A DNA stretch of 64,000 nucleotides. Origin: Tubulanus polymorphus. Its lineage: Eukaryota; Nemertea; Palaeonemertea; Tubulaniformes; Tubulanidae. The notes below the pieces were generated by a model. That model saw nothing but the letters and a program-made list of their open reading frames with translations. It did no database searches and had not been told where the DNA came from. The translations under genes were made by a program, and so were the position numbers. Location: assembly GCF_964204645.1 (NCBI RefSeq), contig NC_134026.1, positions 15,094,450-15,158,449 on the forward strand, read 5' to 3'. Positions 41 to 58,472 of this stretch are shown in pieces. Numbering within the stretch: position 1 is the stretch's first letter; the number at the start of each line of letters is the position of its first letter.

Positions 41-801
41 GGGATGTGTTTAGATGCCAGGTTTGTAATAAACCATACAAAATAATGAAGAACCTTAGGA
101 AACATTTGGTAGAAAAGCATGACTGGGATTTACCCGATGAATCTCCAAAATCGGAGAAAACTGTTGACAGTTGGCCAGCATTCAGTAGCGCGTTTATACA
201 GCTAGGTCTACTCTTACGTGACACGAATGACAGTTTCAAACATAGTAATGGTGATCGCTCTTTTCGAAATGCGAAATTTGAAATGCTCAATGCATTTCCA
301 TGTGGTCATGTCAAATACCGATTATGGCTTTGGCGTATGAATGCATATGAACTTGCCCTATTAACAGAAAAAGAAGCTTTCGAATATGAGTGGAACATAG
401 GAGTTAATCTCCGAGGAGGATACAACATCCCTAACGATAATCTGGTTGAAATAAAAGTTAAGAAAATAAAGCAGAAATTGCGTGATCAAGGAGCAAATGT
501 AACATTTAAATCAGCAAAACTTGCATTTGAATCCTGCCAAATAATTGACGAAATTGTTAACAATGTGCAAAGTTTCAGCGGTTCACCAATAAAAGGTGGC
601 TCAAAAAGTTCAGTATCTAAATTTAAGGATGTTTCGTTGATGGTAAATGAACTAGTTGCAGCTGATGTATTCAATGTGAATGCCGAACGTGATATGGGTG
701 TATTTGATAACTTTAAGAGCCCAATGGAAAGAATCAAAATTTCAGAGTTGAAAATATGGTTAAGGGATCAGAAATGTAGAGCTAAAAGGGAAATGACTTG
801 A
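41..801 (+). CDS. C-terminal exon of a DUF6589-like zinc-finger protein (partial)
   Basis: The reading frame is open from the window edge, but a pyrimidine tract ending in CAG at 38-40 looks like a splice acceptor, so the exon probably starts at 41. It begins with a C2H2 finger (CQVC, then HLVEKH). A region follows with FPCGHVKYRLWLWRMNA and a WNIGVNLRGGYNIPNDNLVE stretch, which resembles the C-terminal part of DUF6589 proteins common in invertebrate genomes, often as mobile-element genes. About 250 residues are visible and the N-terminal exons lie outside the window. No catalytic residues are recognised. The exon ends at a TGA before an AT-rich spacer. It sits back-to-back with a RecQ-like relic on the other strand, and the two could have belonged to one element. 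The family call rests on remembered sequence pattern only. Confidence 0.5.
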
Positions 802-1215
802 ATTAAACAAACTATCTTTGCGACAGGAGAGGGTTAAATGAATGTGTATTATTCATGTGCAATGTGTGTACATTTGTTGTCATTGAATCACTTATTACTT
901 CAGTAGAAAATCGTTAAAAGAACTTTCTCACAGATATAATGATTTATTACAACCATTAAATGTTGTCCTAAATACGAAATATGTTTCGACTAATCACGGG
1001 TAAGACACATTTTCTGGTGCCTAGAAATTCGTTGAAACAATGTTTCACTGTATATAGTGTACTATGAGAATGCTTTGTTAACTAGTCGTATTGACCCAAC
1101 AACAAGTTCTGGTTCGTGCTTGTCTTATAATATTGTCCTTTCTTTAAGCCGGTAATATAAGTGGATGATATATTCTAAAAATATTTTAATTCTTCATCTT
1201 TATTTCATTTTCTTT
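802..1215. other. Non-coding spacer
   Basis: AT-rich sequence after the DUF6589-like exon. I see no credible ORF, repeat or RNA gene in it. It could be the 3' untranslated region and intergenic DNA. Confidence 0.4.
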
Positions 1216-1220
1216 ATCTC

Positions 1221-1400
1221 AATCGGTAGCTCAGTGGGATAAAAGGTGTGATGTCGTTGCATTCATGATCAAGCGGGTTTGAGTCCTGTTGGCTGCTTAC
1301 AGTGTGTGCGGGCAACACTTCAAAGGCCGTGGTCCCTTCATGAGGTTGAATGAAATATCCAATTGGGTTAGTCATGGGGAACCTAGATCCAAACGACGTA
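1221..1400 (+). repeat. tRNA-derived SINE-like head
   Basis: GGTAGCTCAGTGG at 1225-1237 fits a pol III A box, and GGTTTGAGTCC at 1276-1286 fits a B box with one mismatch. Spacing is right for a tRNA-derived promoter. The 5' acceptor arm does not pair convincingly with any 3' arm, so this is a tRNA-like SINE head rather than a working tRNA gene. The SINE body and tail cannot be delimited; 1400 is an approximate end. Confidence 0.5.
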
Positions 1401-1532
1401 CAAACATGATAATGATTGAAATGCTGAACAGGCTTTCTTAAATACATAAGGTTTATAACAATAATGTAAAAAGAACAAAATGATTTATTTGAGCATTCGA
1501 AATAACAAAATCTATACATAAAAATTCACGTA

Positions 1533-3592
1533 TTATAACTCGTCGAAAATGTCTGAAATGCATTGTAAACAATAATTGGCTTGATCAAATGTCAAAACTC
1601 CACAATTGTCCAAAATATCATCTTCATCGCATATATATGGTAACTCTTTTATAATTGATTCGATGACAGAGTTTGAAAAGTTTTGCACGTCCACCGTAAT
1701 ATTATTTGTTGATGAATCACAATCATACGCCTGAAGACGATTCTTTAGTTCATCGATGTTACTTTTTGTGCAAGTACGCTGCTTTTCACGTTTGGAAGGA
1801 GGCTCTGAGACTTTAGCCGGATGAGTTGACTCGCAATCAACACTTTCACATTCACACGATTCACAACATATATCACAGCAAAAATGTTTGATTTTTTGTA
1901 TGACTTCGGCGTCATAAGATTTCATTAACTGTTCACGTCTATGTATTTATGTATTTCGTCATTAAATGGTCCACTTTTTTATTCAGTTGCCGTCCGTTAT
2001 AAATGAGTATATGATCTGACTGTTTACCATCGCGACCGGCTCGACCTAACATTTGGAGGAACATATCGACATCGTATGGTGGGCCAAAATTTACAACGTT
2101 GTGAACTCCCATTCCTGCGGCGGATGTGCAGATCAGTACTCTGATGGATCCATCAGGGTCAGACATGTCCTTTCTAATAATTTCCTTTACTGGATCTGGT
2201 GTACAGCTATGATACATATTTATGTGACGGTGTCCAACTTTGACCTCCAAATCATTATAGACCTTCGCAGTTTCCATGATCGACTGGCAGAATATAATCA
2301 CACGAGGACAATTATGTGGAAAGTCATGAATTCAATCCACCTGCCAACCAAACACAACAGAGTTCGGGTCCTTGCAGGATCTTTGTAAAAGAAAGTTATC
2401 ATAACATATAAAATATTACAAATACCACCAAATTTTCAAAGTGATCGATAGAGAGACTTCAGTAAGAACTTATTTTGTTGAAATTTTTCATTCTCTGCAA
2501 CAATTTCAAACATCAAGTCAATTACCTTTAAAACTGAAAGTTTAGCGTTTTCACGGTCCGGAGAATCAACAATTTCAATAGCGTTCGAATTGATACAGAG
2601 ATTTCTCCTTATCAGTCGCCGAGTTCTATTACTGGTGGTTGCAGTAAGGGCAATGACCGGAACACCTGTATTGAAAAATTTAAATCGAAGTCAAAGAACC
2701 TAACAGAATGCAACGAGGAATAGACAATAAAAATCTACTACTTCAGCTTACCTGGAGAAAGACTCCGTAGCTCACCGATGTGGTTGAACCATGCACGGAA
2801 GGCTTCGGTTTTACTAGAATCGCCCCTGAAAATATTGGAGAGCCAAAATATAGAAGAAAATAAATAGGCTTAATAAAAAAGAACATTTTCGGACTTCGTT
2901 TAAGAGAGACAACAACAGAGAAAAGACTGATTGACATTTTCTTACCATCCAAGGAGAGTGTGTGCCTCATCTACAACGATAGCAATTAATCGTTCTGAAT
3001 ACAACGCCGATGAAACCATGTTCCTCCAAAAACTCTTTGCCAATAGTGTCTCCGGACAACAGAACACGAACTGGTATTCACCAAGCAATATTTTCCGGTT
3101 CTCTTCTTCTGCATGTCCGATATAAGATGCAGAAAACCCAAGACTTTTCAGATATTTACACTGTTCTTCCATTATACTGATTAACGGAGATACAATTATT
3201 ACTATTGTCGACGGTGAAGTCCGGGTCGATAGTTGTTTTTTCTTCAATAAAGAGTCGAAGAGTGGCAAGGCTTGATAAGATAGAGTTTTGCCGGACCCTG
3301 TCTTCGTTGATACAAAAACGTCATTTCTATCGCGTGAAACAGTTATCAAACACAACATCTGATGACTCGATAAACTTTCCAAACCGAAACTACGACAGAT
3401 TTCTTCAAATATTTGCAGTTCGAATTTACTCAGAGACGAAACGGAATCCATATTGGAATTGATTGCCAAAGCGATTATACAACGAGCAATGTGATTGGTG
3501 CCGCCAGTTTTCGTTCGGATAGTGCGCATGTAACTGCGCACATGGTCGTTTATGGCAGGGGTTCGTGCCGTGGCTGAGTGTAGCGATGCCAT
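1533..3592 (-). pseudogene. RecQ-type DEAH helicase, multi-exon, broken
   Basis: Spliced superfamily 2 helicase on the minus strand. Exon 1 (3592-2946) has Walker A TKTGSGKT and the DEAH box VVDEAHT. It ends at a GTAAG donor that joins in phase to 2825-2752. The next exon starts at 2664 and carries the VPVIALTATT motif. Further exons run through 2301-1939, with FCQSI, the conserved STAAGMGV-like region and motif VI QMLGRAGRDG. The final part (1925-1533) has a cysteine-rich segment, CCDICCESCECESVDC, like a RecQ zinc-binding domain, and an acidic tail. Two lesions are visible: an in-frame TGA at 2331-2333, and a frameshift near 1945 between motif VI and the zinc domain. The first ATG at 3592 lies in a tRNA-like repeat, so a start further inside exon 1 is more likely. 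RecQ-like genes of this type are often multicopy in invertebrates. Confidence 0.75.
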
Positions 3593-3640
3593 CAGGTTCG
3601 AGTCCCTGCAGAGGGAGGTTGATGGGAATAGGGCCTATTG
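3560..3640 (+). repeat. Compressed tRNA-like repeat at the 5' end of the helicase
   Basis: TGGCTGAGTG at 3571-3580 resembles an A box, and GGTTCGAGTCC at 3595-3605 is a perfect B box. Their separation is too short for a tRNA, so this is a truncated SINE head or chance match. It overlaps the first ATG of the helicase ORF. Confidence 0.35.
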
Positions 3641-3644
3641 ATTG

Positions 3645-4229
3645 GGCTTATTATTTCCTGCTTTAGAATACTGAAATAAACCTAATGTTCATTCAAATAT
3701 TCAACATCGGTGCAAGTTGGATTACTGTATACATGTACTGTAGGTTTTCATGTTGTATGAATATTTTACAGTTCAAATGGGTATGATGCTAATTCCAATG
3801 TCAGACGCATGAAGTTAGATGGTCAAGGACCGTCAACACCAAGATATCTCTCTTCGACCGATGTTGTACCATAGAAGATCTGATTCTTTTAACTCAGGGA
3901 AAGTGATTCAACACGATCGACATAACACTGGAATAGGTTTGCAGTAACTAACGGTTCATTTCATTTAGTCTTATGTACTTTTTAGCCAATTTGGATTTGA
4001 TTGTAATTGAAACTCTGGAACTGTAAACAAAAGACAAGTAAGACAAGTTGAAAAAACACAAGTTATGCTTGATTCTCATGTTCAAATTTAATTCAAATTT
4101 ATTTTATTACATCATATTTACAAAGCATATCATTGGTTCATACAGTTATAAAAATTTAGGGCAGAACAAATATTATTACAGAATTTCCAAAAGGCAATGA
4201 ATTTCTATAACTAAATGAACATTATTTTT
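3645..4229. other. Non-coding spacer
   Basis: AT-rich DNA upstream of the helicase relic. No ORF or repeat unit that I can support. Confidence 0.3.
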
Positions 4230-4755
4230 AGCCCACTTGGGACTTAAGTCCCAGCGGGCTATTGCGTTCACTTTTCGTCCGTCGTCCATCCGTCCGTCGG
4301 TAGACGGAAATCATTTATTTTAGGAAGTTTTGAAGACGCTTCAATGTAATGTCTTGATATTTGGGTTACACATGTATCTACTCTAGACACATTTTCAGCC
4401 CAAAAACTGGCCCTGTCAGAATCAAGATAGCCGACTGGCAGCCATTGTTGGTTGCCAAAATCAACACTTTTTACACATTTTTGAACTTTTTGAGGGAAAT
4501 TTTGAAGATGCTTTGATCAATAACCTTGATCTTTCGGATATATGTGAATGCCCCCTGGGCCCATCGGATACGGACTCAAGATGGCCGTCCTATGACCTTT
4601 TTTAGTGCCCAAAAATGTCAATTTTGGCCCGAATTCTGAGTTTGCCATTTCTCATTGCAATTTGTGATGGGTATTCTTTGAAAAGAGATGTTTTATACCT
4701 TTGATACCTGAATTGTTAGATTGTTGAGCATTTGGAACCACTTCCCAAGTGGGCA
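4230..4755. mobile_element. Short non-autonomous element with inverted ends
   Basis: The left end reads AGCCCACTTGGGA (4230-4242). The right end, on the other strand, reads TGCCCACTTGGGAAG (4741-4754), giving imperfect terminal inverted repeats of about 12 bp. Inside are a GTCCGTC-rich stretch (4275-4305) and AT-rich filler, with no ORF. The GGGACTTAAGTCCCAGCGGG start and the GTCCGTC run look like a dispersed repeat seen in several marine invertebrate genomes. The length of about 525 bp and lack of coding sequence fit a MITE. No target-site duplication was identified with confidence. Confidence 0.5.
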
Positions 4756-4759
4756 TGGT

Positions 4760-5349
4760 GTCCCTGGACCCCTAGTTCTAATAACTCAGATCAGATGACT
4801 CTCCCGTTTATTAGGAAACACACGCAACTAGTGGAATAGGTTTGATTTACACACATGTTGCAGGTATCAATTGTTTATCGCTATAGAATTTGTAATCCAT
4901 AAAAGCCAAAATCAACATCAGCCGGAAACCCAGACCAAACCAATTCATAATTTATTGATTGAATCTACACTACAATATATGTATTTATTCAAATATTTCA
5001 ACAAAAACATTAACTTCATAAATCTATTCTAAATCCTAATACGTTCTTATCTGTGAATTTACTCAATCTATCGGCTCAGCAGGTGCTTAAGATGAGTTCT
5101 TAATAGGTCAGATCCATTTTTAAGGATGGTGATAATACAGTATCATGATGTTTAAATGCCAAAATAAATGCCTGGTCAAATAAATATATTAATATTTGTG
5201 ATTGTACGTCAGCGTATGTTCAGTTTCAAAGCTGAATCATATTTGACGTTTACACAGTGGTTGCATATTAGGTTCGAATCTGTCAATGCATTTTATTCTA
5301 TGTATCGATATTTAGATTTACTACAATTCCTATCATTCTGAATGGCTTT
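4760..5349. other. Non-coding spacer
   Basis: AT-rich sequence with no supported gene. It separates the short inverted-repeat element from the first Polinton PolB relic. Confidence 0.3.
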
Positions 5350-5350
5350 A

Positions 5351-5384
5351 CAGAAAACCCGTCATCGCTGCTTCGCAGCTATAT
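5351..5384 (-). repeat. Shared boundary motif, copy a
   Basis: On the minus strand: TATAGCTGC, then GAAGCAGCGATGACGGG, then TTTTCTG. The motif contains a small AGCTGC/GCAGC dyad. It lies exactly where the first PolB relic stops. The same motif ends the PolB relic at 13617 and the capsid gene at 63872, so it probably marks the end of another repeat family or a recurrent breakpoint. Confidence 0.55.
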
Positions 5385-7098
5385 TTCATCTTTAAACTTA
5401 CCAGGCTGCTTTTTATCATCATTGCTAAATAGTTCATGATCTTTTGGATAATTGCTAAAGTCAAAATGATGTTTTAATATTTCTAAGTCTTGTTATGTCA
5501 TTTGTCTTGATTTTTAGTATGTAAGCATCTCTATTTAAGAGGATTAATGGAAATCCACAGTTAAATGTTTCATCTTCAGTTGATAAATCATAAACATAAT
5601 CTGTTGGGTTATATATTTCAAATAAATTTCTAACTTCTTCAGTTAGTTCATTTTCTACATGCGTTAATTGAAATACATTTGGTTTATCCTTTCTAATATT
5701 AACCAACATATCAAATCCTAATGAACTGCATAGTATATTTTATCCTGATATAGCAACTTTCCCTTTTTGTATCAAAGATATAGTTTTCTGTTTTGTAAAT
5801 TTTTTAGTGCCATCTGCAGCATAGAATCCAATGAAGAACCATTTTCTTAAATTATCTTTTGCATTTAATACATAATCTGGTACTATCTTTTCTTTAGTTG
5901 AAGTATTACTTTTCACTATTGCATGAATATAGAATTCATCATTACATTTAATTGCAAAATCTTTAGTATTATTTACTTGTATATTATAAATTGCTGATGA
6001 TTTCATAAAATCTATGATTTTAAATGTTTTATTTGGGTAAACTTCTTCACAGTATTTCTTTATTCTTTCTAATAATTTCAAATCTTGATTACATAAATAC
6101 CAACAATATTGAGTTTTATTAACATGCTTATACACACCTGCTGAACCATAACCCATAAAAAGATCCTTAAATAAAATATTCTTTTTCTTCCAATGTTTCT
6201 GGTTCTATATTACAAATATTATCAATGATTTCATCAAATGACATAGGGTTTATTCTTGGATAAAATCTTTTATGTAATAATTCATCCCCAATTTTTATAT
6301 TAGTTGGTTTAATTTCATCACCATTTCGTTTAATTAAGCTATGATCTTCTGTAACATCTACAAACCCTAATTTAGTTCTAACTCTACAGATTTTCTTATT
6401 TGTTTTATGCCTAATTATATTCTTTACTTTTTTCCATCCATTTCTTGTCCAATCATCCATTAATCCATTTATTTGTATTAATTCTTTTTCACCATATGAA
6501 ATATAGAGTTCATTTTGTTTTGGAATTATTTCTGAAATTCTTCTTATTAATATTTGGTTATTGTATTTTAATAATATTGGGGTATCAGCTGTTACAGAAT
6601 CAAAATATAATATTTCAATATGCTTTTCCCCGAAAAGTGGTTGTAAAACATTATAATAAAAATCATACATTAATAATTTTGATATTTCTAAAACAGTTGA
6701 ACCAATGAATATAGGTTTATTAAATTTCATTGACGTTCTTTTTAATTTTACCGCGGTTAAATAATCTTCAAATCTTTTATTTCCTAAATGTCTAGGACTT
6801 GATTGTCTTAATCGTTCAGAATCATTTACTAATTCAATATCATTTCTATTTCTAATATTTTCACATGTTTTTCCATAAAAACTATTATTCATTAATTTGA
6901 AGAAATCTTTTTCAAAATCTGTTTTAGATATGGTTCTCTGTTGATTTTTAAAATCTATATTTTTCTAACCACTTCGATTGATTAAATTCCATATATCTAT
7001 GTACTTTCTTTAATTTCATTCCTTGTTTTAGATAAAATTTTAACATTCTATAATGACCAATATAATTAGGGTTTTCTGTTACATCACAGAAAACCCTA
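5385..7098 (-). pseudogene. Polinton-like family B DNA polymerase, C-terminal half, with intein
   Basis: Minus-strand relic of a protein-primed DNA polymerase. Recognisable pieces: the palm region HYRMLKFYLKQGMKLKK (about 7060), the KLMNNSFYGKT motif B segment (about 6900), the LLMYDFYYNVLQPLFGE stretch (about 6650) and motif C, ILYFD, at 6600. There an intein interrupts the gene, and the sequence resumes as DAYILKIKTN at 5529. Lesions are a frameshift near 6955, an intein stop and frameshift, a frameshift near 5478, and truncation at 5385 right after the PGKFKDE segment by the boundary motif. Exonuclease and motif A regions are missing; the 5' side ends near 7098 in an inverted AGGGTTTTCTGT/ACAGAAAACCCT pair. 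It is the same family as the other four PolB copies here but carries extra sequence at the active site. Confidence 0.85.
5533..6598 (-). other. Degenerate LAGLIDADG intein in PolB motif C
   Basis: Starts directly after YFD with Ser1 (codon 6598-6596) and block A SVTADTPILL. A block B-like VDVTEDHSLI follows at about 6350, with Thr and His of the usual TxxH splicing motif. The middle holds two LAGLIDADG-type helices: GLFMGYGSAG (about 6150) and FFIGFYAADG (about 5830). The first has Tyr where an acidic residue normally sits. The C-terminal block reads DYVYDLSTEDETF and ends LLN at 5535-5533, giving a terminal Asn. Total length is about 355 codons, normal for an intein with a homing endonuclease. 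It is inactive by sequence: TAA at about 6169-6167, a frameshift between 6167 and 6156, TAA at 5742-5740, and the +1 extein residue is Arg where nucleophilic Thr stands in sister copies. The intein-free PolB copies at 40.6 and 57.9 kb show an uninterrupted YFDTDSY. Confidence 0.85.
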
Positions 7099-7116
7099 TT
7101 GAGATTCGCGTGTTTC

Positions 7117-7151
<35 letters not shown>
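7117..7151. repeat. (TTA)n microsatellite
   Basis: About eleven TTA units between the PolB relic and unrelated DNA. On the minus strand it would read as a poly-Asn run, which has no meaning as protein here. Confidence 0.9.
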
Positions 7152-7159
7152 TTTTACCA

Positions 7160-8185
7160 CACATTTTTTGTCAAAAGTACATAGGCTTTTTTACATTACC
7201 GCTGTTGCCGATACAATCCGTCTAATATCATTAAGCTCAGTACGATCTACAAATACTCCGTGCGAATTTTGAAGAATCAACGTTACAAAAGCACTGTCGG
7301 GCCGTAAACATCGAAAATTGAGCCCCATTCAAAGAGCCGACATGTTTTTCTAAGTCGTCTTGCCGAAATCTACCGCACGTTTCTTGTCACATCGATTATC
7401 AATTCAAGCATAAATTAACAAATTTATTACCGAAAGATTGCACATTCTGTCGCGGTTTTTAAAAACTAATTTTAACAGTAACCCATTTTCCTCATCAAAT
7501 TATATTACTGATACACAGGAAATATACTACTTTAGATTTTAAAAGCACTGTCGAGCCGTAAACATCGACAAATCGACGTGTGTCACTACATCGTCGTTCC
7601 GGGAATCAGCTGCGAGTTTCTCCTCATTCTGAGAATCAAATCGAGTACAAATTAATTTATTACTACCAGTGATTTGGCTGCGGGCGTCAAGCAGTTAATT
7701 TAGCAATACCTATTTTTCTTTACCAAATTTACCGTGTTTTTACTAAGATAAATCATAAGTGTACCGGGGAGTCGTAGGCCTTAACTAAACACGCCGAAGA
7801 GATATAGCGGAGAAAAGCTGTTATGTCGACGAGGTATCAAAATAAAAGAATACATTACTTTATTCGGCCGCGGCCCTCTATATCAATACCATCAATACTC
7901 TATATTTCCTACAGTACATACCGATCATTGTCAAATCCACAAGGTATTTACTGAATACAAGTATATAACACACTCCTATCCGTATGCTGGACTCACACTT
8001 GACATTCGGAGTAAGCGTTCGCAGTGGGGGAAAGGAGATCGTTCGCTGTGTCGCTTGAAGTGTTTATCGAGTTTTACGCGACCTTAAAGCTTTAGTATGG
8101 TGGCTGATAAGATAAAAAAACACGAATATGCAAATAAGGGCGACATTACGACAAAACGACAAAACTAAAATAACGCGAGAAAACA
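7160..8185. other. Non-coding region with a duplicated segment
   Basis: No supported gene. A 28-bp block AAAAGCACTGTCGRGCCGTA... at 7287-7314 recurs at 7541-7568, and sequence downstream of each copy (for example AAATTAA near TTTATTAC) is loosely similar. This suggests two diverged direct repeats of about 254 bp. Confidence 0.45.
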
Positions 8186-8186
8186 A

Positions 8187-10765
8187 TGATTTTGATTTTG
8201 TCGCCCGCGACAATTCATTATTTTGGTTTTATCGCCCACGACCATTCATTACTTTGGTTTTATCGCCAGCGACAATGCATTATTTTGGTTTTGTCGCCCC
8301 CGACAATTCTTCTTTTTGGTTTTTTCGCCCGCGACAATTCATTATTTTGGTTTTATATTTTGTTTTTGTCGCCCGCGAAATTTTTCTTTTTTGGTTTTGC
8401 CGCCTGCGACAATTCAATATTTTGATTTTATCGCCCGAGACAATTCAATATTTTGGTTTTATCGCCCGCGATAATTCATTATTTTGGTTTTGTCGCCTGA
8501 GAAAATTCATTATTTTGGTTTTATCACCCGCGACAATTCACCATTTTGGTTTTGTCGCCCGCGACAATTCACCACTTTGGTTTTGTCGCCCGCGACAATT
8601 CATTATTTTGGTTTTATCGCCCGCGACAATTCATTATTTTGGTTTCATCGCCCGCGACAATTCATTATTTTGGTTTTGTCGCCCCGACAATTCTTTTTTT
8701 GGTTTTGTCGCCCGCGATAATTCATTAGTTTGGTTTTGTCGCCCGCGACAATTCAATATTTTTTTATTTTATCGCCCGCGATAATTCATTATTTTGGTTT
8801 TATCGCCCGCGACAATTCATAACTTTGGTTTTATCGCCAGCGACAATGCATTATTTTGGTTTTGTCGCCCCCGACAATTCTATTTTTGGTTTTGTCGCCC
8901 GCGATAATTCATTAGTTTGGTTTTGTCGCCCACGACAATTCAATATTTTTTTATTTTATCGCCCGCGATAATTCATTATTTTGGTTTTATCGCCCACGAC
9001 AATTCATTACTTTGGTTTTATCGCCAGCGACAATGCATTATTTTGGTTTTGTCGCCCCCGACAATTCTTCTCTTTGGTTTTTTCGCCCGCGACAATTCAT
9101 TATTTTGGTTTTATATTTTGTTTTTGTCGCCCGCGAAATTTTTCTTTTTTGGTTTTGCCGCCTGCGACAATTCAATATTTTGATTTTATCGCCCGAGACA
9201 ATTCAATATTTTGGTTTTATCGCCCGCGATAATTCATTATTTTGGTTTTGTCGCCTGAGAAAATTCATTATTTTGGTTTTATCACCCGCGACAATTCACC
9301 ATTTTGGTTTTGTCGCCTGCGACAATTCACCACTTTGGTTTTGTCGCCCGCGACAATTCATTATTTTGGTTTTATCGCCCGCGACAATTCATTATTTTGG
9401 TTTTATCGCCCGCGACAATTCATTATTTTGGTTTTATCGCCCGCGACAATTCATTATTTTGGTTTTGTCGCCCCGACAATTCTTTTTTTGGTTTTGTCGC
9501 CCGCGATAATTCATTAGTTTGGTTTTGTCGCCCGCGACAATTCAATATTTTTTTATTTTATCGCCCGCGATAATTCATTATTTTGGTTTTATCGCCCGCG
9601 ACAATTCATTATTTTGGTTTTGTCGGCCGTGGCAATTCATTATTTTAGTTTTATCGCCCGCGACAATTCATTATTTTGGTTTTATCGCCCGCGACAATTC
9701 AATATTTTGGTTTTGTCGCCCGCGACAATTCAATATTTTGGTTTTGTCGCCCGCGACAATTCACCATTTTGATTTTGTCGCCTGGACAATTCACCATTTT
9801 GGTTTTGTCGCCCGCGACAATTCATTGTTTGTGTTTTGTCCCCCGACAATTCTTTTTTTGGTTTTGTCGCCCGTGACAATTCATTAGTTTGGTTTTGTCG
9901 CCCGCGACAATTCAATATTTTGGTTTTATCGCCCACGACAATTCATTACTTTGGTTTTATCTCCAGTGACAATTCATTATTTTGGTTTTGTCGGCCGTGG
10001 CAATTCATTATTTTAGTTTTATCGCCCGCGACAATTCATTATTTTGGTTTTATCGCCCGCGACAATTCAATATTTTGGTTTTGTCGCCCGCGACAATTCA
10101 ATATTTTGGTTTTGTCGCCCGCGACAATTCACCATTTTGATTTTGTCGCCTGGACAATTCACCATTTTGGTTTTGTCGCCCGCGACAATTCATTGTTTGT
10201 GTTTTGTCCCCCCGACAATTCTTTTTTTGGTTTTGTCGCCCGTGACAATTCATTAGTTTGGTTTTGTCGCCCGCGACGATTCAATATTTTGGTTTTATCG
10301 CCCACGACAATTCATTACTTTGGTTTTATCTCCAGCGACAATTCATTATTTTGGTTTTGTCGCCCGCGACAATTCTTGTTTTTGACGCCCGCGACAATTC
10401 ATTATTTTGGTTTTATACTTTGTTTTTGTCACCTGCGACAATTTTTTTTGGTTTTGTCGCCCGCGACAATTCAATATTTTGGTTTTGTCGCCCGCGACAA
10501 TTCATTATTTTGGTTTTATCGCCCGCGACAATTCAATATTTTGGTTTTATCGCCCGCGATAATTCATTATTTTGGTTTTATCGCCCGCGACAATTCAATA
10601 TTTTGTTTTTATCGTCCGCGACAATTCATTAAAATTTTGGTTTTGTCGCCCGAGACAATTCATTATTTTGGTTTTATCACCCGCGACAATTCATTATTTT
10701 GGTTTTGTCGCCCGCGACAATTCATTATTTTGGTTTTATCGCCCGAGACAATTCATTAATTTCAT
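8187..10765 (+). repeat. 31-bp satellite with higher-order structure
   Basis: Unit is roughly ATTATTTTGGTTTTATCGCC plus CGCGACAATTC, 31 bp, repeated about 80 times with small indels. Each unit has a TCGC/GCGA dyad. Because 31 is not a multiple of 3 and the plus strand lacks stop codons in the unit, all three plus frames stay open for long stretches. The predicted proteins (up to 307 codons, repeating FWFCRPRQF-like words) are artefacts of the repeat. Higher-order duplication is visible: an odd unit with TTTATATTTTGTTTTTGTC at about 8350 recurs at about 9108 (offset 758), and a unit with GTCGCCTGGACAATTCACC at about 9776 recurs at about 10144 (offset 368). Confidence 0.95.
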
Positions 10766-10779
10766 TAATTGCTAATGAC

Positions 10780-11110
10780 TTAAGCCGGACGTAGGTCGGC
10801 TTTGCGACGGCTTGTGACTGCGACGCCATTCGCCAGCGACGATTGTGTCGCAACGACTCCTCGACCTACGCTCCCTTGCGACGGGTTGCGACTGTCAGCA
10901 ACGCCAGTCACAAGGAGTCGCACGTGTTCTGCGACGTTCTTCTTTCTGCGACGCGACACGACTGTCACAACCGACCTACACGCTCTTGCGACTGGCAGAA
11001 ACTAGTCGTACACAGTCGCTGACAATCGTATCGCAACCGACTTGCGCCGAAACTTACGATGCAACGCGAGGATCGCATCGCGACGCAAGGCCGAACTACG
11101 TCCGGCTTAA
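10780..11110. mobile_element. TTAA-flanked MITE
   Basis: Terminal inverted repeats TTAAGCCGGACGTAGGTCGG (from 10780) and the complementary GCCGAACTACGTCCGGCTTAA (to 11110) match at 20 of 21 positions. Both ends lie in TTAA (10780-10783 and 11107-11110), as expected for insertion at TTAA, the piggyBac-type target. The 331-bp interior is GC-rich and full of TTGCGAC/GTCGCAA words in both orientations. It has no real ORF. It sits at the edge of the 31-bp satellite. Confidence 0.75.
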
Positions 11111-11154
11111 GGTTACTGCGGAGCCCCAGAAATATCTTTTTTTTCGTTCATAGG

Positions 11155-11588
11155 ACCTTTCGCTTAAAAATTCTTTCGTCGGAACAAAATTTATTTCGTT
11201 CCAACAAATAATATTCTGTTCGATTGAACCAATTTGAAAAAATCGTTAGACCATCAGAACATCAAGTTTTTCGTTCGAACAAGTATATTGTCAAAAGTTT
11301 TTTCTCCAAACCAAAATTATTAAGTATTTCGTTCAATTGTACAGAATTGTTATCATTCAAACATTCATTCCAAAAAATTGTTTTTGATCAACCAAATTTT
11401 TTTAACCGGGACAAAGTTTTTCATTTCAACAATAACATAGCTTTTTATTCGAACACATTTTTTGTCAGAATGAAGAAAAGTTTTGGTTCAAACAAAAAGC
11501 GTATTGTTTGATCAAACAGAATTGTTTTCATTCGAACACGATTTTCTTGTCGGAACATTAAGTTTTTTGGTCGAACAGCGTGTGAAGG
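11155..11588. repeat. Degenerate GTTCGAAC-spaced repeat
   Basis: Recurring TTCGTTCGAACA / CATTCGAACA / GTCGGAACA words spaced about 20-45 bp apart, separated by AAATTTT-type filler. It looks like an old satellite whose units are bounded by the palindrome GTTCGAAC. Short ORFs here are incidental. Confidence 0.6.
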
Positions 11589-11785
11589 TCACGACAATTC
11601 AAGATTTTGGTTTTATCGCCCGCGACAATTCATTTTTTGGTTTTGTCGCCCGCGACAATTCAATATTTTGGTTTTATCGCCAGCGACAATTGATTATTTT
11701 GGTTTTATCGCCCACGACAATTGATTATTTTGGTTTAAACGCCCGCTTCGACAATTCATTCTTTTGGTTTTGTCGCCCACTTTAT
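11589..11785 (+). repeat. Residual units of the 31-bp satellite
   Basis: Six or so further TTTTGGTTTTATCGCC/CGACAATTC units, diverged and on the same strand as the main array. They show that the MITE and the GTTCGAAC repeat lie inside, not beside, the original satellite block. Confidence 0.85.
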
Positions 11786-11789
11786 TAGC

Positions 11790-12960
11790 TATATATCGCG
11801 ATATATCGTGTCAAGTCGACATGAATATGTCGACATATCGTGACGTTTTCACGACAAATTTCGCTTTTTTACGGAAGCGATAAAAGGCCTCGAGATGTCG
11901 CGTTCCAACTCGACAAGTCGCCATATTTATGTCGGCATACCGCGATATATCGCGTCAAGTCGACATGAATATGTCGATATATCGTGACGTTTTGACGACA
12001 ACTCGAGGCCCTTTATCGCTTCCGTACTTTTTCGCCCATTTTCCACGGGACAAGCCGTCATTTGAAGACACGTTGAAATGTAAGATGAGGACGCCAGTAA
12101 TATGGCGACTGTACGGAAGCGATGAAGGGCCTCGAGTTGTCGTGTTCAAACTCGACAAGTCGCCATATTCATGTCGATATATCGCGATATATCGCGTCAA
12201 GTCGACATGAATATGTCGACATATCGTGACGTTTTCACGACAAACTTCGCTTTTTTGCCCATTTTCCACAGGACAAGCCGTCATTTGAAGACATGTCTAA
12301 ATGTAAGATGAGGACGCCAGTGATATGACGACTGAGTTTCAAGTCGTCATGAATATGTCGACTTGTCGCGAGGAAAATGGTCATGAGAACGAAATATGTC
12401 GTCAAAACGTCACGATATGTCGACATATTGATGTTGACTTGACGCGATATATCGCGGTATGTCGACATAAATATGGCGATTTGTCGAGTTGGAACGCGAC
12501 ATCTCAAGGCCCCTTATCGCTTCCGTACGACTGAGTTTCAAGTCGTCATGAATATGTCGAATTGTTGCGAGGAATATGGTTGAGAAAACGAAATATGTCG
12601 TCAAAACGTCACAATATGTCGACATATTCATGTCGACTTGAAGCGATATATCGCGATATGTCGACATAAATATGGCGACTTTGTCGAGTTGGAACGCGAC
12701 AACTCGAGGCCCCTTATGGCTTCCGTACTTCCGTATATATGGGACCCGTACAAAACCGTCGCGACCTTTTATCACGACGAAATTATGTCGAACAAATTTG
12801 ATACATCGCGATTTATCGACATAATTAAGTCGATATATCGTGTTAATATCACGATAAATCGTTATACGGATCACGCCTTTCACCAATCTCGACGTCTGTA
12901 TCTCAACATAACCGCGTACCGTCGACATAATTATCACCCCTTTAGCTAAAATGTCGTGAT
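11790..12960. repeat. Dyad-symmetric GTCGACAT satellite
   Basis: Blocks built from CGCGATATATCGCG, GTCGACATGAATATGTCGAC, ATCGTGACGTTTT and CTCGAGGCCCTTTATCGCTTCC. Copies run forward at about 11800-12290 and in reverse complement at about 12390-12740. For example, the forward TCGACAAGTCGCCATATTTATG (11918-11939) matches the reverse-complement CATAAATATGGCGATTTGTCGA (12466-12487). The array is therefore itself arranged as a large inverted repeat. ORFs in it read ISRQVDMNMST-like words from the repeat and are not genes. Confidence 0.85.
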
Positions 12961-13489
12961 ACGTATGGCAATTTATTGAGACAATATCGCAAAAAATTCG
13001 ACATAAAAATCACGACATTTTAAATAAGGTCTTCCTAGTTACATCGATATATTGAGATAGTTAACATAATTTCAATAAGGGGACGCATACTTAATGATGT
13101 TTAATGTTAGATGAATATGAAAGAAGAAATGAAGTTGGCAGAAAAATTAAAATGACTTTATCATCACCAGAATCTGGTGGACATATTGAATGTTGGGGTT
13201 CAGGTAGAATACCCCAAATGCTGGGGCACAATAATAGTGTTCGGTACATGGTCAATGAACTAAATAGGTCATTCGCATCAATACTTTGTCACAATTGATT
13301 TGCGGTATATTTTGGATTACTGTGTATGTCATTTGTCAGGACATGAAACAGTAGAAGACTTAGGATACTACCTAGCGTGACTCCACTACTTAGAACTTAT
13401 TCCAAGATGAGGCGTTCCGTTGATTTTGGCTATTTTGGTTTTCGTTCAGAGATAACTGCTGAGCCATTTGGGCGACCTATCATTGATAC
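12961..13489. other. Spacer with one unrecognised small ORF
   Basis: A 64-codon plus-strand ORF (13104-13298) contains SGGHIECWGSGRIPQM but matches no family I know, and no promoter or partner supports it. The rest is AT-rich and featureless. Confidence 0.25.
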
Positions 13490-13583
13490 TGTTTCCTAAT
13501 AGCCTGTTTAGTTAGTAATGGCTGATGTTGTGCCTTATCAAATGCTTTGTCGAAATCCACCGATGAACAGGATTCTAAGACAG
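13490..13583 (-). pseudogene. Reverse transcriptase fragment
   Basis: A short minus-strand open stretch reads SVDFDKAFDKAQHQPLL, which fits RT motif A and following residues of a non-LTR retrotransposon (FxDxxKAFDxxxHxxLL). It directly abuts the boundary motif at 13584. If the motif belongs to the same element as this fragment, the boundary could be the end of a truncated LINE. Confidence 0.4.
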
Positions 13584-13617
13584 CAGAAAACCCGTTATCG
13601 CTGCTTTGCAGCTATAT
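13584..13617 (-). repeat. Shared boundary motif, copy b
   Basis: Minus strand: ATATAGCTGC, AAAGCAGCGATAACGGG, TTTTCTG. It matches copy a (5351-5384) with two differences and ends the second PolB relic. Confidence 0.55.
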
Positions 13618-16600
13618 TTGTATTTATTATTTTGAGTAAGTATTAATTTTTCTGTATAAACATGATCTTTCGGTTTTATTTTCTTCTGGTATTCACTTAA
13701 ATAACTATCATCAACGGCTAAATGTTCTGGGCAATATGGTAAGTTTCTTGTTTTAAACTTTATGTTATCAGGATATTCTTAATCAACTACAAAGAAATTA
13801 CCAATTGTTGCTTCATCTTCTAAACTCATAATTGCGCTTTTCCAATTCGTTTTATCATCATTTTCAACTTCTGCTAATATAAAATTTTTGTATGGTTGAG
13901 GTTGCATCATTTGCCCAACCATATAAATTATTGGCATCAATATATAATAATTTATATTCATCATTTGCTTTAAAATGTCTATCTCCCATAACACCACTAA
14001 TTCCACCTCTAATTGATTTTTCAAATAATAAAACCATGTCTGGTTCTTTTAATAAATCTAATTCTACATTTGTATATTTTAAACCACATTGCCAAGTTAA
14101 ACCAGGACTTGAATAACAAAAGCAGGGATCAACATTAAAATGATTCAAATTAACTTCTCTAAATTTTTCAAATATGTCAGTCAATATCATAACATCTGAT
14201 TCCAAGTATAAATCTACTAATTCACCATGATTTTCTATCATAAAATGATTCCAAATATTCAATGTTCTATTAGAAACTTCATCTTTCACATACTCCTCTT
14301 TTAATTGATCATAAAATTGTTCTTTTAATAATTCTGTTACATTAAAATCATCATGTGTTTTATAAAACGAATAAGGAATTGCGCCTTTATATCTCAATAA
14401 TTTAAAATCTTGTTCATTTGGATAATAATGTCGAGTTATTATAAAATCATTATCAACTAAATTTTTGCTAAATTATCTAATGAACTTGCTAGAAATCTAT
14501 AAGAATCTAAAAATCTAATGCAACCAAATTGAAATGAAATATAATTTTCAGATGTCTTAGCTAATAGTTTAAAATCATATTTTCTTACATTTGCTTCATT
14601 CATAGCATTATATTCTTCTATTTCTTGATTAATTGCGCCCAATTTTCCTGATAATTGTTTTATAAATAGATGGGTATCATAGCCTGATAATTTATGAAAT
14701 AATATTGGTACGAAATTAGCTTTCTTAGCTTGTAAATTGCAATCTTCATGAGCAGCGCCACGGTATTTTGAATTTAAATGATCGTGATCTCTAACTTTTT
14801 TATCAAATGAATAAAAACGTTTTTCACAGTAACAACAATGAGTTGCATAATCAAAATCAATTTCATCTTCTTTTTTCATAACTATTCTTTTATTTTTGTT
14901 TAATAATTGTGCGAAATCACTTTCTAATTCAATTATTTTGTTACAAAAATCATTAACTACATCTTCACCTCTAAAAGAAATATATTAACTTTCATATAAT
15001 TCAGGATAATTTGATTTTATATAAATTCCATAAGCAGCAGCTCTTTGATGAACTTTTTAAATTGTATTTATAATTGGTGGGTCTTGAATTATATCTTCAT
15101 TTAGTTCATTTTCTTTATCCATTGATTTTAAAAATAGTTTTTTGTTATATATTTCTTTTCTATCTTGATCAGTTAATTCTTTATTCAACGATTCAAAATC
15201 CCCATAAATTACAAATGGAACAATATTTTTAAATTTATGATTAGTAAATTTCAACTTACAATCTTTTTTTGTTGGCATTATTAATTTACAAAAATCTTTA
15301 TTATCACATAATTCTTTATGTTTTAGTAACGCATTTTCTGTCATAAATTTAGATAAACATTTTCTACGTAGATAAATTTTATTATGATGGTCACTTTCTT
15401 TTCTAAAGAATAAATCAATTTGTTTTAACCACATATAATGTTCATTTTCATCTTTTTTGTAATATAACAAATCTATAACATTTTCATCATCATAATATTC
15501 TGTTAAATATAAAGCTTCTAATGTATAATCTTTAATATTTTCACCTTTTGTATCTGGTAATTGCATTAATTCGAATACATTTATTTTTAAATTATTAACT
15601 TTTTCTATTTTAGGAATAATTTTTATAGTTACTGGATATTGATCAATTTTATATAATGTTTCATATTTCCGGTAATTTGTTTTTCTACAAACATGTTCTT
15701 CTGTTGCGTGTAAGCAACTAATAATTGACCATAGAAACATTTACTATCTTCATTTTGAACATTTATTACTGCTTTTGTTGTAAATGGATGCGTTAATATC
15801 CTTTTCTGTTGTAAAGTTTGAATCATTTTTAAACATTTTATTACTTTTTGATGTTTTATTTCTTTTTGTATTATAAACATTCAAATATAAAAATATAATT
15901 TCATTTAATGATAAGCCAGAACCCTCAAAATATCTTTCCTCAATATGACGTTTAAATTCATTAAATATTTTTTCTAATTTCGCTTTTATTTGTGTTTTTG
16001 ATATTGTTTCTTCACAGTGTGTTTGAATATTATAATCCATTTTTTCTTCTGATTTTACAAAACTTACTTTCCCAGAGATACTAATTTTTGGATATTCAAC
16101 ATCTGTAATAAAGTCCATTATTTTTTCCATGATTTCAATAAATTTACTATAATCTTCTATTGTTGCTCCTTTAAAAAATCTAAATATAATAGCTGCTGGT
16201 CCAATATTACTACGTAATGTTTCTAAAATTTCAATTGTATCTTTTATTTCTAGTGAATCGATATAATTTCTTACATTTTCCATGTAAGGTTTATTTGAAA
16301 TAGATTTAGTTTTTGAAACTGGTTTTTTTACTTGTTGAGGTTTATTATCAAAATAATCTGTTCCTAAAACATTATTACTTAAATTTTGTTTGTGTTTTTG
16401 CGATTCGAGATGTCTTTTATAATTCCTTTTTGCTATAAATTCATTACAAACTTCACATTTTATTTCATCCATATTCATATTTTCTAATTGTTCTTTTCTT
16501 TCATTGGAATTTTCTGGAGTTTCAAAATCTATAACATTTTTTATATGATTTGCAGTTTTTTCATGTCGTGCTTTATGAGATTTATCAATGTATTTTTTAC

Positions 16601-16662
16601 AACATGTACAATAATATTGATTTTCATTAACATCATTGTTTTCTGTCTGGTACTCACTATCT
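13618..16662 (-). pseudogene. Polinton-like PolB, N-terminal two-thirds (copy 2)
   Basis: From the 5' side: a CCxxC zinc motif (about 16610), a second C2H2 finger CEVCNEF...HLESQKH (about 16450), then the conserved SNKPYMENVRNYIDSL region. Next come Exo I FVIYGDFESLN (about 15200), an endonuclease VII-like zinc/HNH insert (CCYCEKRF, VRDHDHLNSKYRGAAHEDC, about 14800), Exo II LSGYDTHLF (about 14680) and Exo III SDVMILTDIF (about 14180). Motif A is YIDANNLYGWA (about 13930). The expected initiator ATG, present in copy 3, is ATT here. Several frameshifts and stops break the frame (near 15740, 15058, 14985, 14457 and 13910). The gene is cut off past motif A by the boundary motif at 13617. It lies about 90 bp from the element terminus at 16752. 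Confidence 0.85.
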
Positions 16663-16752
16663 CCAATTTATTAGGGAAAAAAATTACCCGTGGTGATGAG
16701 TGGTGTGTCGCCCTCTCGCCCTCTGGTCTGAAACCCTGATATTCCAATTACT
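16663..16752 (-). repeat. Polinton-like terminus next to PolB copy 2
   Basis: Read inward from 16752: AGTAATTGGAATATCAGG, GTTTCAGACCAGAG, the doubled GGCGAGAGGGCGA word, then CACTCATCACCAC. The same order of words occurs beside PolB copy 3 (40315) and at 53011, and more loosely at 54169. Ends starting with AG are usual for Polintons. Confidence 0.65.
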
Positions 16753-22548: not shown

Positions 22549-22703
22549 CGGGCTCCCGAGAGCGGTGACCGGATCGCGTCGCGCTTGGTTTGGTGCCGGT
22601 TCTTCGTGTTCGTCGGACCTGGAAATGGAAGAAATCAGAGAAGCATTGGTTAATTCCGGTTGATTTAACTCACCAATAGTGGACCCGTTGGTCTCACTAA
22701 TAC

Positions 22704-33143: not shown

Positions 33144-33298
33144 CGGGCTCCCGAGAGCGGTGACCGGATCGCGTCGCGCTTGGTTTGGTGCCGGTTCTTC
33201 GTGTTCGTCGGACCTGGAAATGGAAGAAATCAGAGAAGCATTGGTTAATTCCGGTTGATTTAACTCACCAATAGTGGACCCGTTGGTCTCACTAATAC

Positions 33299-40234: not shown

Positions 40235-40239
40235 TTATA

Positions 40240-40315: not shown

Positions 40316-41130
40316 GGTAAGACTTGTGAAAATATCAGAAATAGAAATGATATTGAGTTAGTTAGCAATGGTAAAAGAATTAGACATTTACAAACATATC
40401 CTAAATTCATTGGTAACAGAATATTTGATGGAAATTTAGCTGCAGTTAAAATGAGAACTTCTATGAAATTTAATAAGCCAATTTATGTTGGTGCTTCAGT
40501 TTTAGAAATATCAAAGTTATTAATTTATGAATTCTATTATAACGTATTACAACCTCATTTTGGAGAAAAACATATAGAAATCTTATATTTTGATACTGAC
40601 AGTTACATATTGAAGATAAAAACTAGTAACACAACAGATGATTTAAAAACATTAAAACATCATTTCGGTTTTAGTAATTATCCGAAAGATCATGAATTGT
40701 TTAGCAATGATAATAAAAAGGTGCCCGGGAAGTTTAAGGATGAATTAGGAGGTGAAGAAATGATAGAGTTCATTGGAATTCGAAAAATATAAAAATGTAT
40801 TCATATAAAACTAAAACTCATGAAGCTAAAAAGTTAAAAGGAATTACTAAAATTGTAGTAGAAAAGAATATTCATTTTAAAGATTACATCAATTGTATAT
40901 TTAATGAAGAAGTTAGAAAACATAAGATGAAATGTTTAAGATCAGAAGATCATGAAATGTTTATTGAAGAGATAGAGAAGATAAGTTTGAATCCTTTCGA
41001 TGATAAAAGATATATTTTGGATGATGGAATTCATACAGTCGCGTATGGTTGCAATTTAGAAGAATACTTAAAATTTAAAAGAGAAGAAGAGAAAGAAAAG
41101 GAAATAATGAACAGGATTATAACGTGTTAA
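40316..41130 (+). pseudogene. Polinton-like PolB, C-terminal third (copy 4)
   Basis: Begins inside motif B (GKTCENIRNRNDIEL), with upstream parts missing. Carries the NVLQPHFGEKHIEILY stretch, motif C YFDTDSYILK (about 40590, no intein), KVPGKFKDELGGEEMIEF, and the conserved HEAKKLKGITK end, finishing at TAA 41128-41130. One frameshift sits near 40792. It runs opposite to copy 3 and joins it head-to-head at the terminus. Confidence 0.9.
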
Positions 41131-57300: not shown

Positions 57301-58433
57301 AATCTAGCATACTGTCCAGAACATAAAACTGTAACACATGAAGAATTATCAAATTATCGAAAAAGAATTAAACCTGATAATCATATTCATACAGAAAAGT
57401 TTATGGTAACTCAGGAAGATAAATATAATTATGTAGTACATTATAGAATTTTAAAATTCTATTTGAATCAAGGAATGATTCTAAAAAAAGTACATAGATA
57501 TATTTCATTCAGTCAATCTAAATGGTTAGAAAAATATATAGATTTTAACACCAAACAGAGAACTAAAGCTAAAACTGATTTTGAGAACGATTTTTTCAAA
57601 CTAATGAATAATTCATTCTATGGTAAGACTTGTGAAAATATTAGAAATAGAAATGATATTGAGTTAGTTAGTAATGGTAAAAGAATTAGACATTTACAAA
57701 CATATCCTAAATTTATTGGTGACAGAATATTTGATGAAAGTTGTTAAAATGAGAAGAACTTCTATGAAGTTCAATAAACCAATTTATGTTGGAGCAACAG
57801 TTTCAGAAATATCAAAATTATTAATGTATGAATTTTATTATAACGTATTACAACCACATTTTGGAAAAAAATATATAGAAATCTTATACTTTGATACCGA
57901 CAGTTACATATTAACATTTACATAGATTAAAACTAATAATATAACAGATGATTTAAAAACATTAAAACATCATTTCGACTTCAGTGATTATCCTAAAAAT
58001 CATGAATTAAATAGCAATGATAATAGAAAGGTTCCTGGGAAGTTAAAGGATGAATTAGGAGGTGAAGAAATGATAGAATTTATAGGTATTAGATCTAAAA
58101 TCTGTTCATATAAAACTAATACTCATGAAGCTAAAAAGTTAAAAGGAATTACAAAAAGCGTTGTTGAAAAAAATATTCATTTCAAAGATTACATCAATTG
58201 TATATTCAATGAAAAAGTTAGAAAACATAAGATGAAATGTTTAAGATCTGAAGATCATGAAATGTTTATTGAAGAGATAGAGAATATAAGTTTGAATCCA
58301 TTTGATGATAAAACATGTTTTAGATGATGGTATACACACAGTCGCTTATGATTGCAATTTAGATGAATACTTAAAATTTAAAAGAGAAGAAACAAAAGAG
58401 AATGAGATTATGAAAAGGATTCTAACATGTTAA
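54400..58433 (+). pseudogene. Full-length Polinton-like family B DNA polymerase (copy 5)
   Basis: About 1,340 codons from ATG 54400 to TAA 58433, the only copy spanning the whole gene. Order: zinc motif YYCSTCK (54420), degraded C2H2 finger, KRPYMEDVRNYINSL, Exo I YGDFESLN (about 55830), endonuclease VII-like insert CFYCEKTF and VRDHNHLNGKFRGAAHENC (56190-56300), Exo II NLSGYDTHLF (56335), Exo III SDVILLTDIF (56835), motif A YIDADNLYGWAM (57096), motif B LMNNSFYGKT (57600), motif C YFDTDSY (57889, no intein), and the HEAKKLKGITK C-terminus. This is protein-primed replication machinery. Breaks include a TAA at 54448, a TAA at 54976, stops near 55910, TAA at 57247-57249, and frameshifts near 55170, 57745 and 57920. 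Confidence 0.92.
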
Positions 58434-58472
58434 TCGGCTTTAATTCAATTTTGATAAAAATATGTATAATAA

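What the first reader, a model, noticed from the sequence alone, without database searches (positions are those of the whole stretch)
5533..6598. Intein in the catalytic YFD-TDS site of an animal Polinton-like DNA polymerase
The sequence shows Hedgehog/intein blocks (SVTADTPILL, VTEDHSLI, DYVYDLSTED, terminal Asn) and two LAGLIDADG-type helices placed exactly at PolB motif C. Family knowledge: inteins at this PolB site occur in archaea and giant viruses; I do not recall one in metazoan Polinton-like elements. Two sister PolB copies in this window (40.59 and 57.89 kb) have empty sites, as expected for a homing parasite. It is decayed (two stops, one frameshift, Arg at +1), so it is a fossil of past mobility.
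Basis: partly seen in the sequence, partly recalled or inferred. Interest (0 to 1): 0.9.

Follow-up and report, generated by a model that had tools for sequence, protein, structure and literature searches.

The report
Mobile intein in animal Polinton polymerase
A protein-splicing parasite (an intein) sits in the catalytic site of the DNA polymerase of a virus-like element that is present in well over a hundred copies in an animal genome, a kind of genome in which published papers say inteins do not occur.

Summary
On the minus strand, 6598-5533 is an intein in polymerase motif C (YFD|TDS), with intein and LAGLIDADG profile support. Two sister polymerases in the window have the site empty. This copy is dead: two stops, a frameshift, Arg at +1, a lost LAGLIDADG Asp. 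'Fossil' is wrong for the genome: 144 scored places carry the junction, 11 of them in open frames of 1686-1690 aa. The host is an animal (39 Wnt matches, 0 of 14 controls). One carrier copy followed end to end is a Polinton (terminal repeats, 6-bp duplication, rve integrase, A32-like ATPase). Inteins of DNA_pol_B_2 polymerases form one clade (quick tree, SH-aLRT 99), but polymerases that carry them do not (AU p 5.5e-5), so the intein has moved between polymerase lineages. Inside the host, intein distances are unlinked from the polymerase stretches beside it, though other modules are mosaic too. Two papers state that metazoan genomes lack inteins (passages). Splicing and cutting were not tested.

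The parts
5533..6598 (-). Intein (355 codons in unbroken copies; 1066 bases here), at PolB motif C between YFD and TDS
6569..6598 (-). N-terminal splice block A (SVTADTPILL), Ser1
   Evidence: Ser1 in 26 of 26 host copies
6332..6355 (-). Block B (VTEDHSLI), Thr83 and His86
6136..6165 (-). First LAGLIDADG-type helix; catalytic Asp150 changed to Tyr here
   Evidence: 24 of 25 readable host copies keep Asp; the window is the exception
5809..5829 (-). Second LAGLIDADG-type helix (GFYAADG), Asp262 kept
5533..5535 (-). C-terminal Asn355
5530..5532 (-). +1 codon of the C-extein: AGA (Arg) where 18 of 19 readable copies have Thr
6599..7067 (-). PolB N-extein next to the intein
13613..16752 (-). Earlier part of the same PolB copy up to the element's end (terminal repeat region)
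   Evidence: 92-93% DNA identity to an unbroken copy
7068..13612 (.). Other DNA that splits the PolB copy, with a 31-bp tandem array
5382..5532 (-). PolB C-extein, cut short at 5382
40316..40783 (+). Sister PolB (intein-free family) with the empty site at 40594|40595
57698..58312 (+). Third PolB family with the empty site at 57895|57896

Best explanation
It is a full-length class-1-type intein: a Hint splicing domain with a two-motif LAGLIDADG homing endonuclease. It sits in the catalytic motif C of the family-B DNA polymerase of a Polinton, a virus-like element that lives in many copies in the chromosomes of an animal. Inferred working: the polymerase is made as a precursor; Ser1, the block B Thr/His, Asn355 and Thr+1 carry out protein splicing, which is the only way to restore the YFD-TDS catalytic site; the endonuclease part cuts empty motif C sites and repair copies the intein in, together with some flanking polymerase sequence. 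It spreads by two routes: passively with transposition or infection of the Polinton, and actively from one polymerase copy to another. Shown: sequence anatomy, unbroken frames, kept catalytic residues, signs of purifying selection, patchy distribution in the polymerase tree, segment swaps. Inferred: splicing, cutting, present-day activity. The copy in the window is a dead member.
For: Intein profile over cut-off; LAGLIDADG_3 over cut-off in an unbroken copy; PI-PkoII in the PDB. The same site (an Asp, the intein, then TDS) in the 45 relatives whose junctions were printed, of 120 listed. 144 host places with the junction, 11 with 1686-1690 aa frames. Key residues in 26 host copies: Ser1, Thr83, His86 26 of 26; Asp150 24 of 25 readable; Asp262 25 of 25; Asn355 19 of 19; Thr+1 18 of 19. 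dN/dS within the intein 0.24, 0.29 and 0.11 for its N, middle and C parts, 45 pairs of 10 copies chosen for open frames. Polinton hallmarks of one copy: C3:13163647-13181400, terminal repeats 175 bp at 98.9%, ends AG...CT, 6-bp duplication, rve and Pox_A32 over cut-off. Animal host: Wnt. Horizontal movement: inteins one clade (99, quick tree) but upstream polymerase parts not (at least 6 changes on 38 rows; AU p 5.5e-5); intein 47% identical to that of P0004, whose polymerase gives no BLAST match.
Against: No splicing, cutting or expression data. Pfam Intein_splicing stays under its curated cut-off. The residue before Asn355 is Lys in 21 of 25 readable copies, not His, though most PF00136-type relatives printed have Lys there too. 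133 of the 144 listed frames are shorter than full length. Segment swaps also affect other modules of the element, above all a capsid-side gene at 7000-7800 of the aligned stretch, and intein distances do show a weak correlation with the stretch 8000-8800 (r 0.33, p 0.008), so the swaps need not be driven by the nuclease.
Confidence: 0.88

Rival explanations
1. Passenger only: the intein entered this Polinton lineage once, long ago, and has since multiplied only because the Polinton multiplies. Homing plays no part in this host, and the swapped segments come from ordinary recombination between related elements.
For: All 144 scored places of this family carry the junction (the query contained it, so empty members of the family would have been missed), and the 150 empty places found belong to another polymerase family. 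Other modules of the element are mosaic as well.
Against: Nearly identical copies differ over the intein and its flanks (pair L030-L031: 10-19 of 200 positions per window from 3601 to 5200, with one window at 2, against 0-4 in the windows of 401-3600, with one at 10). Polymerase stretches on both sides of the intein agree with each other (r 0.84) but not with the intein (r 0.07 and -0.02). Nuclease residues and a dN/dS of 0.29 in the nuclease part suggest it is still selected.
Confidence: 0.35
2. Non-splicing or regulatory Hint domain: the insert cleaves or merely interrupts the polymerase, so the copies are non-functional or separately regulated.
For: The penultimate residue is not His, and the third residue of motif C after the intein is Ala instead of Ser in 10 of 19 readable host copies.
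Against: Ser1, block B, Asn355 and Thr+1 are kept. The polymerase next to the intein shows very low dN/dS (0.03 and 0.08), expected only if the spliced polymerase matters.
Confidence: 0.07
3. Fossil: all that is left of a once mobile intein.
For: The window copy has two stops, a frameshift, Arg at +1 and no Asp150.
Against: 11 of 144 scored copies have unbroken 1686-1690 aa frames.
Confidence: 0.03
4. Contamination or assembly artefact from a protist or giant virus.
Against: Most copies lie inside 11-32 Mb contigs (C1-C12), six of which also carry Wnt exons; the C3 copy has its own target-site duplication in flanking DNA.
Confidence: 0.02

Closest known systems
DNA polymerase inteins of large eukaryotic DNA viruses (Phycodnaviridae, Iridoviridae, Mimiviridae in the table of Green et al. 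2018, PMC5784728, passages read); archaeal PolB motif C inteins (recalled)
   Same: Relatives with PF00136 polymerases share the insertion point, Ser1, block B, the LAGLIDADG part and the Asn/Thr junction; 34-42% identity over the intein. Iridoviruses include viruses of invertebrates, so inteins in viruses of animals are not new.
   Different: The polymerase around it is the DNA_pol_B_2 kind of a Polinton (protein-primed by family knowledge, not tested), and the copies are part of animal chromosomes.
P0001 (database protein, 1693 aa) and P0002 (1537 aa, 136 members in its cluster)
   Same: Same polymerase architecture and allelic intein: 63% and 49% identity.
   Different: Host unknown; their polymerases sit on other branches of the polymerase tree, next to empty ones.
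Homing endonuclease insertions in Polinton pPolB (Jeong et al. 2023, nematodes; not held, known only through a sentence in PMC11071308, passage read)
   Same: Homing nucleases inserted in Polinton polymerases; the citing preprint suggests intein invasion.
   Different: The passage names endonuclease domains at various positions; whether a Hint domain is present there I could not read.
Hedgehog/Hog Hint domains of animals
   Same: Hint relatives occur in animals (PMC2362128, passages read).
   Different: Recalled: they cleave rather than splice and carry no LAGLIDADG; this one has both intein ends and the nuclease.

Membership tests
Intein (class 1) | Ser or Cys at position 1 and Hint N-terminal profile | tested here: met
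   Ser1 26 of 26; TIGR01445 over cut-off
Intein (class 1) | Block B Thr-x-x-His | tested here: met
   26 of 26
Intein (class 1) | C-terminal Asn and Cys/Ser/Thr at +1 | tested here: met
   Asn 19 of 19 readable, Thr 18 of 19; the window copy has Arg
Intein (class 1) | In-frame insertion at a conserved site, absent in homologues | tested here: met
   YFD|TDS; the 150 listed places of the sister family (1710 candidates, 150 scored) align through the site without interruption
Intein (class 1) | Protein splicing | not testable with these tools
   needs a bench assay
Intein (class 1) | Curated Pfam splicing-domain cut-off (PF14890) | tested here: not met
   17.2 and 22.4 bits against 35.8. Relatives with the same architecture carry a precomputed PF14890, so I read this as lack of sensitivity, not as failure of kind
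LAGLIDADG homing endonuclease | Two LAGLIDADG helices with acidic residues | tested here: met
   PF14528 over cut-off in an unbroken copy; Asp150 24 of 25, Asp262 25 of 25
LAGLIDADG homing endonuclease | Site-specific cutting of the empty allele | not testable with these tools
   only indirect signs
Polinton/Maverick | Terminal inverted repeats starting AG and 6-bp target-site duplication | tested here: met
   one copy examined end to end; the hallmark itself is recalled
Polinton/Maverick | PolB, rve integrase, packaging ATPase | tested here: met
   PF03175 in polymerase pieces of the window; rve and Pox_A32 over cut-off, Chromo under it
Polinton/Maverick | Double jelly-roll major capsid protein | tested here: inconclusive
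   Capsid_N E 0.0018 and 0.038 for two cuts of the same protein, under cut-off
Polinton/Maverick | Cysteine protease (Ulp1-like) | not tested
   no match seen among the ORFs scanned, but not all ORFs were scanned
Animal host | Gene families confined to animals (Wnt; confinement recalled) | tested here: met
   39 Wnt matches over cut-off, in several places as successive exons; 0 of 14 control genomes

The most novel reading that the evidence does not exclude
Animal chromosomes host a living, mobile intein: in this animal the intein is still homing between Polinton polymerase copies, replacing itself and a few hundred bases of flank in otherwise near-identical elements, and Polintons are the vehicle that carries inteins between giant-virus-type polymerases and animal genomes.
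Probability: 0.4. Interest if true: 0.9.

Novelty: new member of a known kind. Interest (0 to 1): 0.76.

Why it matters
Two papers state that inteins are absent from metazoan genomes, and one calls this an unexplained puzzle (PMC5784728 and PMC6805012, passages read). Here an animal genome carries one at 144 or more places, inside an endogenous virus-like element that brings its own polymerase. This gives a route (virus-like mobile element plus homing) and a system in which intein persistence, splicing in animal cells and spread between polymerase types can be measured. [quoted passage not shown]

Tried and rejected
Viral contigs: close searches with the window piece and with P0001 found no relative; a search with a five-sequence alignment found two contigs, both with the site empty. 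Idea that silent diversity at the site reflects recoding to escape the nuclease: with 14 full frames both families showed a peak, but with 26 and 25 copies the gradient was strong only in the intein family and mild in the intein-free one, and other modules are just as diverse, so I do not claim it. Small contig C77 (15.6 kb, first 4 kb read) was looked at as a possible mitochondrial genome; it was not recognisable as one. A cytochrome oxidase search of the genome did not complete. The retrotransposon search for a named host gave no names. Rfam gave nothing in the window. Paper searches that bear on novelty; judged from the listings, and from passages of PMC11071308, PMC12220804, PMC3671162, PMC5718144, PMC10120064, PMC2362128, PMC7765530, PMC5784728 and PMC6805012, none reports a complete intein in an animal genome; no paper was read whole. 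Jeong et al. 2023 is not held.

Full report
What is there. On the minus strand of the window, 6598-5533 encodes an intein. Its first residue follows YFD of the polymerase motif C, and after its last Asn the polymerase goes on with RDAYILK, where unbroken copies read TDSYILK or TDAYILK. Comparison with an unbroken genome copy fixes the borders to the base. NCBIfam's intein N-terminal model matches over its cut-off (E 2.5e-7). Pfam's Intein_splicing is under its cut-off both in the window piece (E 0.0046) and in an unbroken copy (E 1.2e-4), while LAGLIDADG_3 is over its cut-off in the unbroken copy (E 6.7e-7) and not significant in the broken window piece (E 0.2). By sequence the best PDB relative is the archaeal PI-PkoII (E 1.9e-6). 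The window copy is dead: two in-frame stops, one frameshift, Arg at +1 and Asp150 to Tyr. It is one polymerase copy that begins at 16752, is split at 13613/7067 by about 6.5 kb of other DNA, and stops at 5382.

It is not only a fossil. A search of the window's own genome (267.8 Mb, 77 contigs) with the piece that spans the N junction scored 144 of 1380 candidates, and all 144 matched across the junction at 89-100% identity. The query contained the junction, so empty members of the same family would not show. Eleven of the 144 lie in open frames of 1686-1690 aa; the other 133 are shorter. In 26 copies read in detail (the 20 loci that fetched, the window copy among them, and six more chosen for open frames), Ser1, Thr83 and His86 are kept in 26, Asp150 in 24 of 25 readable, Asp262 in 25 of 25, Asn355 in 19 of 19 and Thr+1 in 18 of 19; the window copy is the exception in two of these. 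Among ten unbroken copies dN/dS is 0.24, 0.29 and 0.11 in the N, middle and C parts of the intein and 0.03-0.37 in the parts of the polymerase. The ten were chosen for having open frames, so this describes the functional class, not all copies.

The carrier. One copy was followed end to end in separate stretches: C3:13163647-13181400, 17,754 bp, terminal inverted repeats of 175 bp at 98.9% identity that begin with AG, and the same six bases (ctggtt) on both sides. It encodes the polymerase with intein, an integrase with rve over its cut-off (E 2.5e-10) and Chromo under it (E 8e-4), an A32-like ATPase (E 2.7e-13) and a protein with a weak Capsid_N match. These are Polinton hallmarks; the capsid call is weak and a protease was not found among the ORFs scanned. 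The polymerase is zinc-finger, endonuclease VII-like and family B in its parts, the DNA_pol_B_2 matches coming from sister and fragment copies in the window.

The host is an animal. Wnt, which I know as a family confined to animals, gives 39 matches over cut-off on six contigs (C1, C3, C4, C5, C7, C9), in several places as successive exons, and rings in 0 of 14 control genomes. A stretch of C3 taken without regard to its content also held exons of an RPE65/BCO-type oxygenase. I could not name the species. The Polinton copies lie mostly in the contigs C1-C12, which are 11-32 Mb long.

Empty sites. The sister at 40.59 kb belongs to a second polymerase family without intein; the 150 places listed for it (150 of 1710 candidates scored) align straight through the site, and the four members fetched whole have frames of 1356-1357 aa. 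The sister at 57.89 kb is of a third family. The genome also holds a further polymerase type, related to the polymerase of P0004, with frames of 753-1309 aa in the ten places listed and no intein match there.

Relatives. 279 database proteins match the intein; 120 were listed. The 45 whose junctions I printed have the same site, an Asp, the intein, then TDS. Identity of intein against polymerase: P0001 63 against 54-59%, P0002 49 against 43-44%, P0009 42 against 39-52%, P0004 47 against no detectable match, polymerases with PF00136 34-42 against no detectable match. In a quick tree of 114 inteins (four host, 110 of the 120 listed; five of the 120 did not meet the boundary rule and five more were outside the length limits) the inteins of DNA_pol_B_2 polymerases form one clade of nine rows (SH-aLRT 99) in a larger set of PF00136-type polymerase inteins, and P0004 falls inside it (92). 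Of 4449 polymerase relatives the best 120 were listed. By motif search 66 of these have the site empty, four carry the intein start (P0001, P0002 and two that end inside it), and 50 fit neither pattern; of these 50 I looked at 11, of which nine read DCDS at the site and two end before it, so the other 39 are unchecked. In a quick tree of the polymerase upstream part alone (38 rows: six host, six intein-bearing database proteins, two viral contigs and 24 that I picked from the 116 listed rows without an intein start), intein presence changes at least six times, and a tree that holds the nine carriers together is rejected (AU p 5.5e-5). The host's intein family is sister to P0121-P0123 and the host's own intein-free family, all empty. 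One inherited intein with many losses could give such a pattern in principle, but P0004's unrelated polymerase argues for transfer.

Movement inside the host. Ten copies were aligned over 10 kb. Pairs that are nearly identical elsewhere in the gene differ over the intein and its flanks: L030 and L031 differ at 0-4 of 200 positions in the windows from 401 to 3600 (one window at 10), at 10-19 of 200 from 3601 to 5200 (one window at 2), and at 0-2 from 5201 to 6000. Distances in stretches on both sides of the intein agree (r 0.84, p 0.001), but neither agrees with the intein (r 0.07 and -0.02). Against reading this as homing alone: stretches at 1901-3400, 6001-6900 and 7000-7800 are largely unlinked too, 7000-7800 is more diverse than the intein, and the intein shows a weak correlation with 8000-8800 (r 0.33, p 0.008). 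Third-position diversity in the 60 codons before the site is roughly ten times that of the zone 121-195 codons upstream in the intein family, and roughly twice in the intein-free family; single bins farther off are high as well. Next to the site, members of the two families share identical 45-base stretches of two kinds, while mean best cross-family identity falls to 71% at 181-225 bases upstream but is back at 93% at 361-405; conservation of the protein explains part of this.

Known and new. Inteins at this motif are known in archaeal polymerases (recalled) and polymerase inteins in large DNA viruses, iridoviruses of invertebrates among them. Two papers state that metazoan genomes have none (PMC5784728, PMC6805012; [quoted passage not shown] A preprint remarks that Polinton polymerases contain diverse homing endonuclease domains that may reflect intein invasion (PMC11071308, passages read), citing work on nematodes that is not held here. 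So the general idea has been voiced; a complete intein with unbroken frames in an animal genome was not found in the searches made (listings). By kind it is a new member of a known intein family; by place it is unexpected.

Noticed in passing
window 7068-13612: Other DNA inside the polymerase copy, with a 31-bp tandem array (8189-10762, about 80 units like ATTTTGGTTTTGTCGCCCGCGACAATTCATT). A related end sequence (CAGAAAACCCGT.ATCGCTGC) stands near 5351 and 13584, and its first ten bases near 7087, so the same kind of element may have hit the copy more than once.
   Followed up: partly
window 37287-40315 and 40315-41050: A truncated N-terminal part of an intein-family Polinton abuts, at 40315, a polymerase of the intein-free family on the other strand.
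   Followed up: partly
window 54606-63874: An element whose polymerase is only 71-78% identical to the intein family while its capsid-side stretches are about 86-87% identical, that is, modules are exchanged between Polinton families.
   Followed up: partly
window 20968-24269 and 30843-34834: Two stretches with a similar reverse transcriptase, the second with a GIY-YIG match just under its cut-off, as in Penelope-like elements.
   Followed up: no
window 24960-27521: Non-LTR retrotransposon with endonuclease and reverse transcriptase.
   Followed up: partly
host copies L008, L012, L017, L018 (C-terminal junction): The last intein codons are an A-run (CAAAAAAAT); these four of the 19 copies L002-L020 are one base short there, so frames break right at the splice junction.
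   Followed up: no
P0132, P0136, P0138 and six others: Nine of the eleven 'neither' relatives printed have DCDS instead of DTDS at motif C, that is, Cys at the residue that would be +1 of the intein.
   Followed up: no
host copies, third residue after the intein: Motif C reads TDA instead of TDS in 10 of 19 readable intein copies; the intein-free family uses both AGT and TCT codons for the same Ser.
   Followed up: no
G000, ten places: A further polymerase type (33-40% identical to P0004's polymerase) with frames up to 1309 aa and no intein match lives in the same genome; a possible partner for intein transfer between polymerase types.
   Followed up: no
aligned stretch 7000-7800 of L023-L032: A capsid-side gene of 252 aa is far more diverse between otherwise similar copies than the polymerase or intein (up to 56 of 200 positions in the pairs shown).
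   Followed up: no
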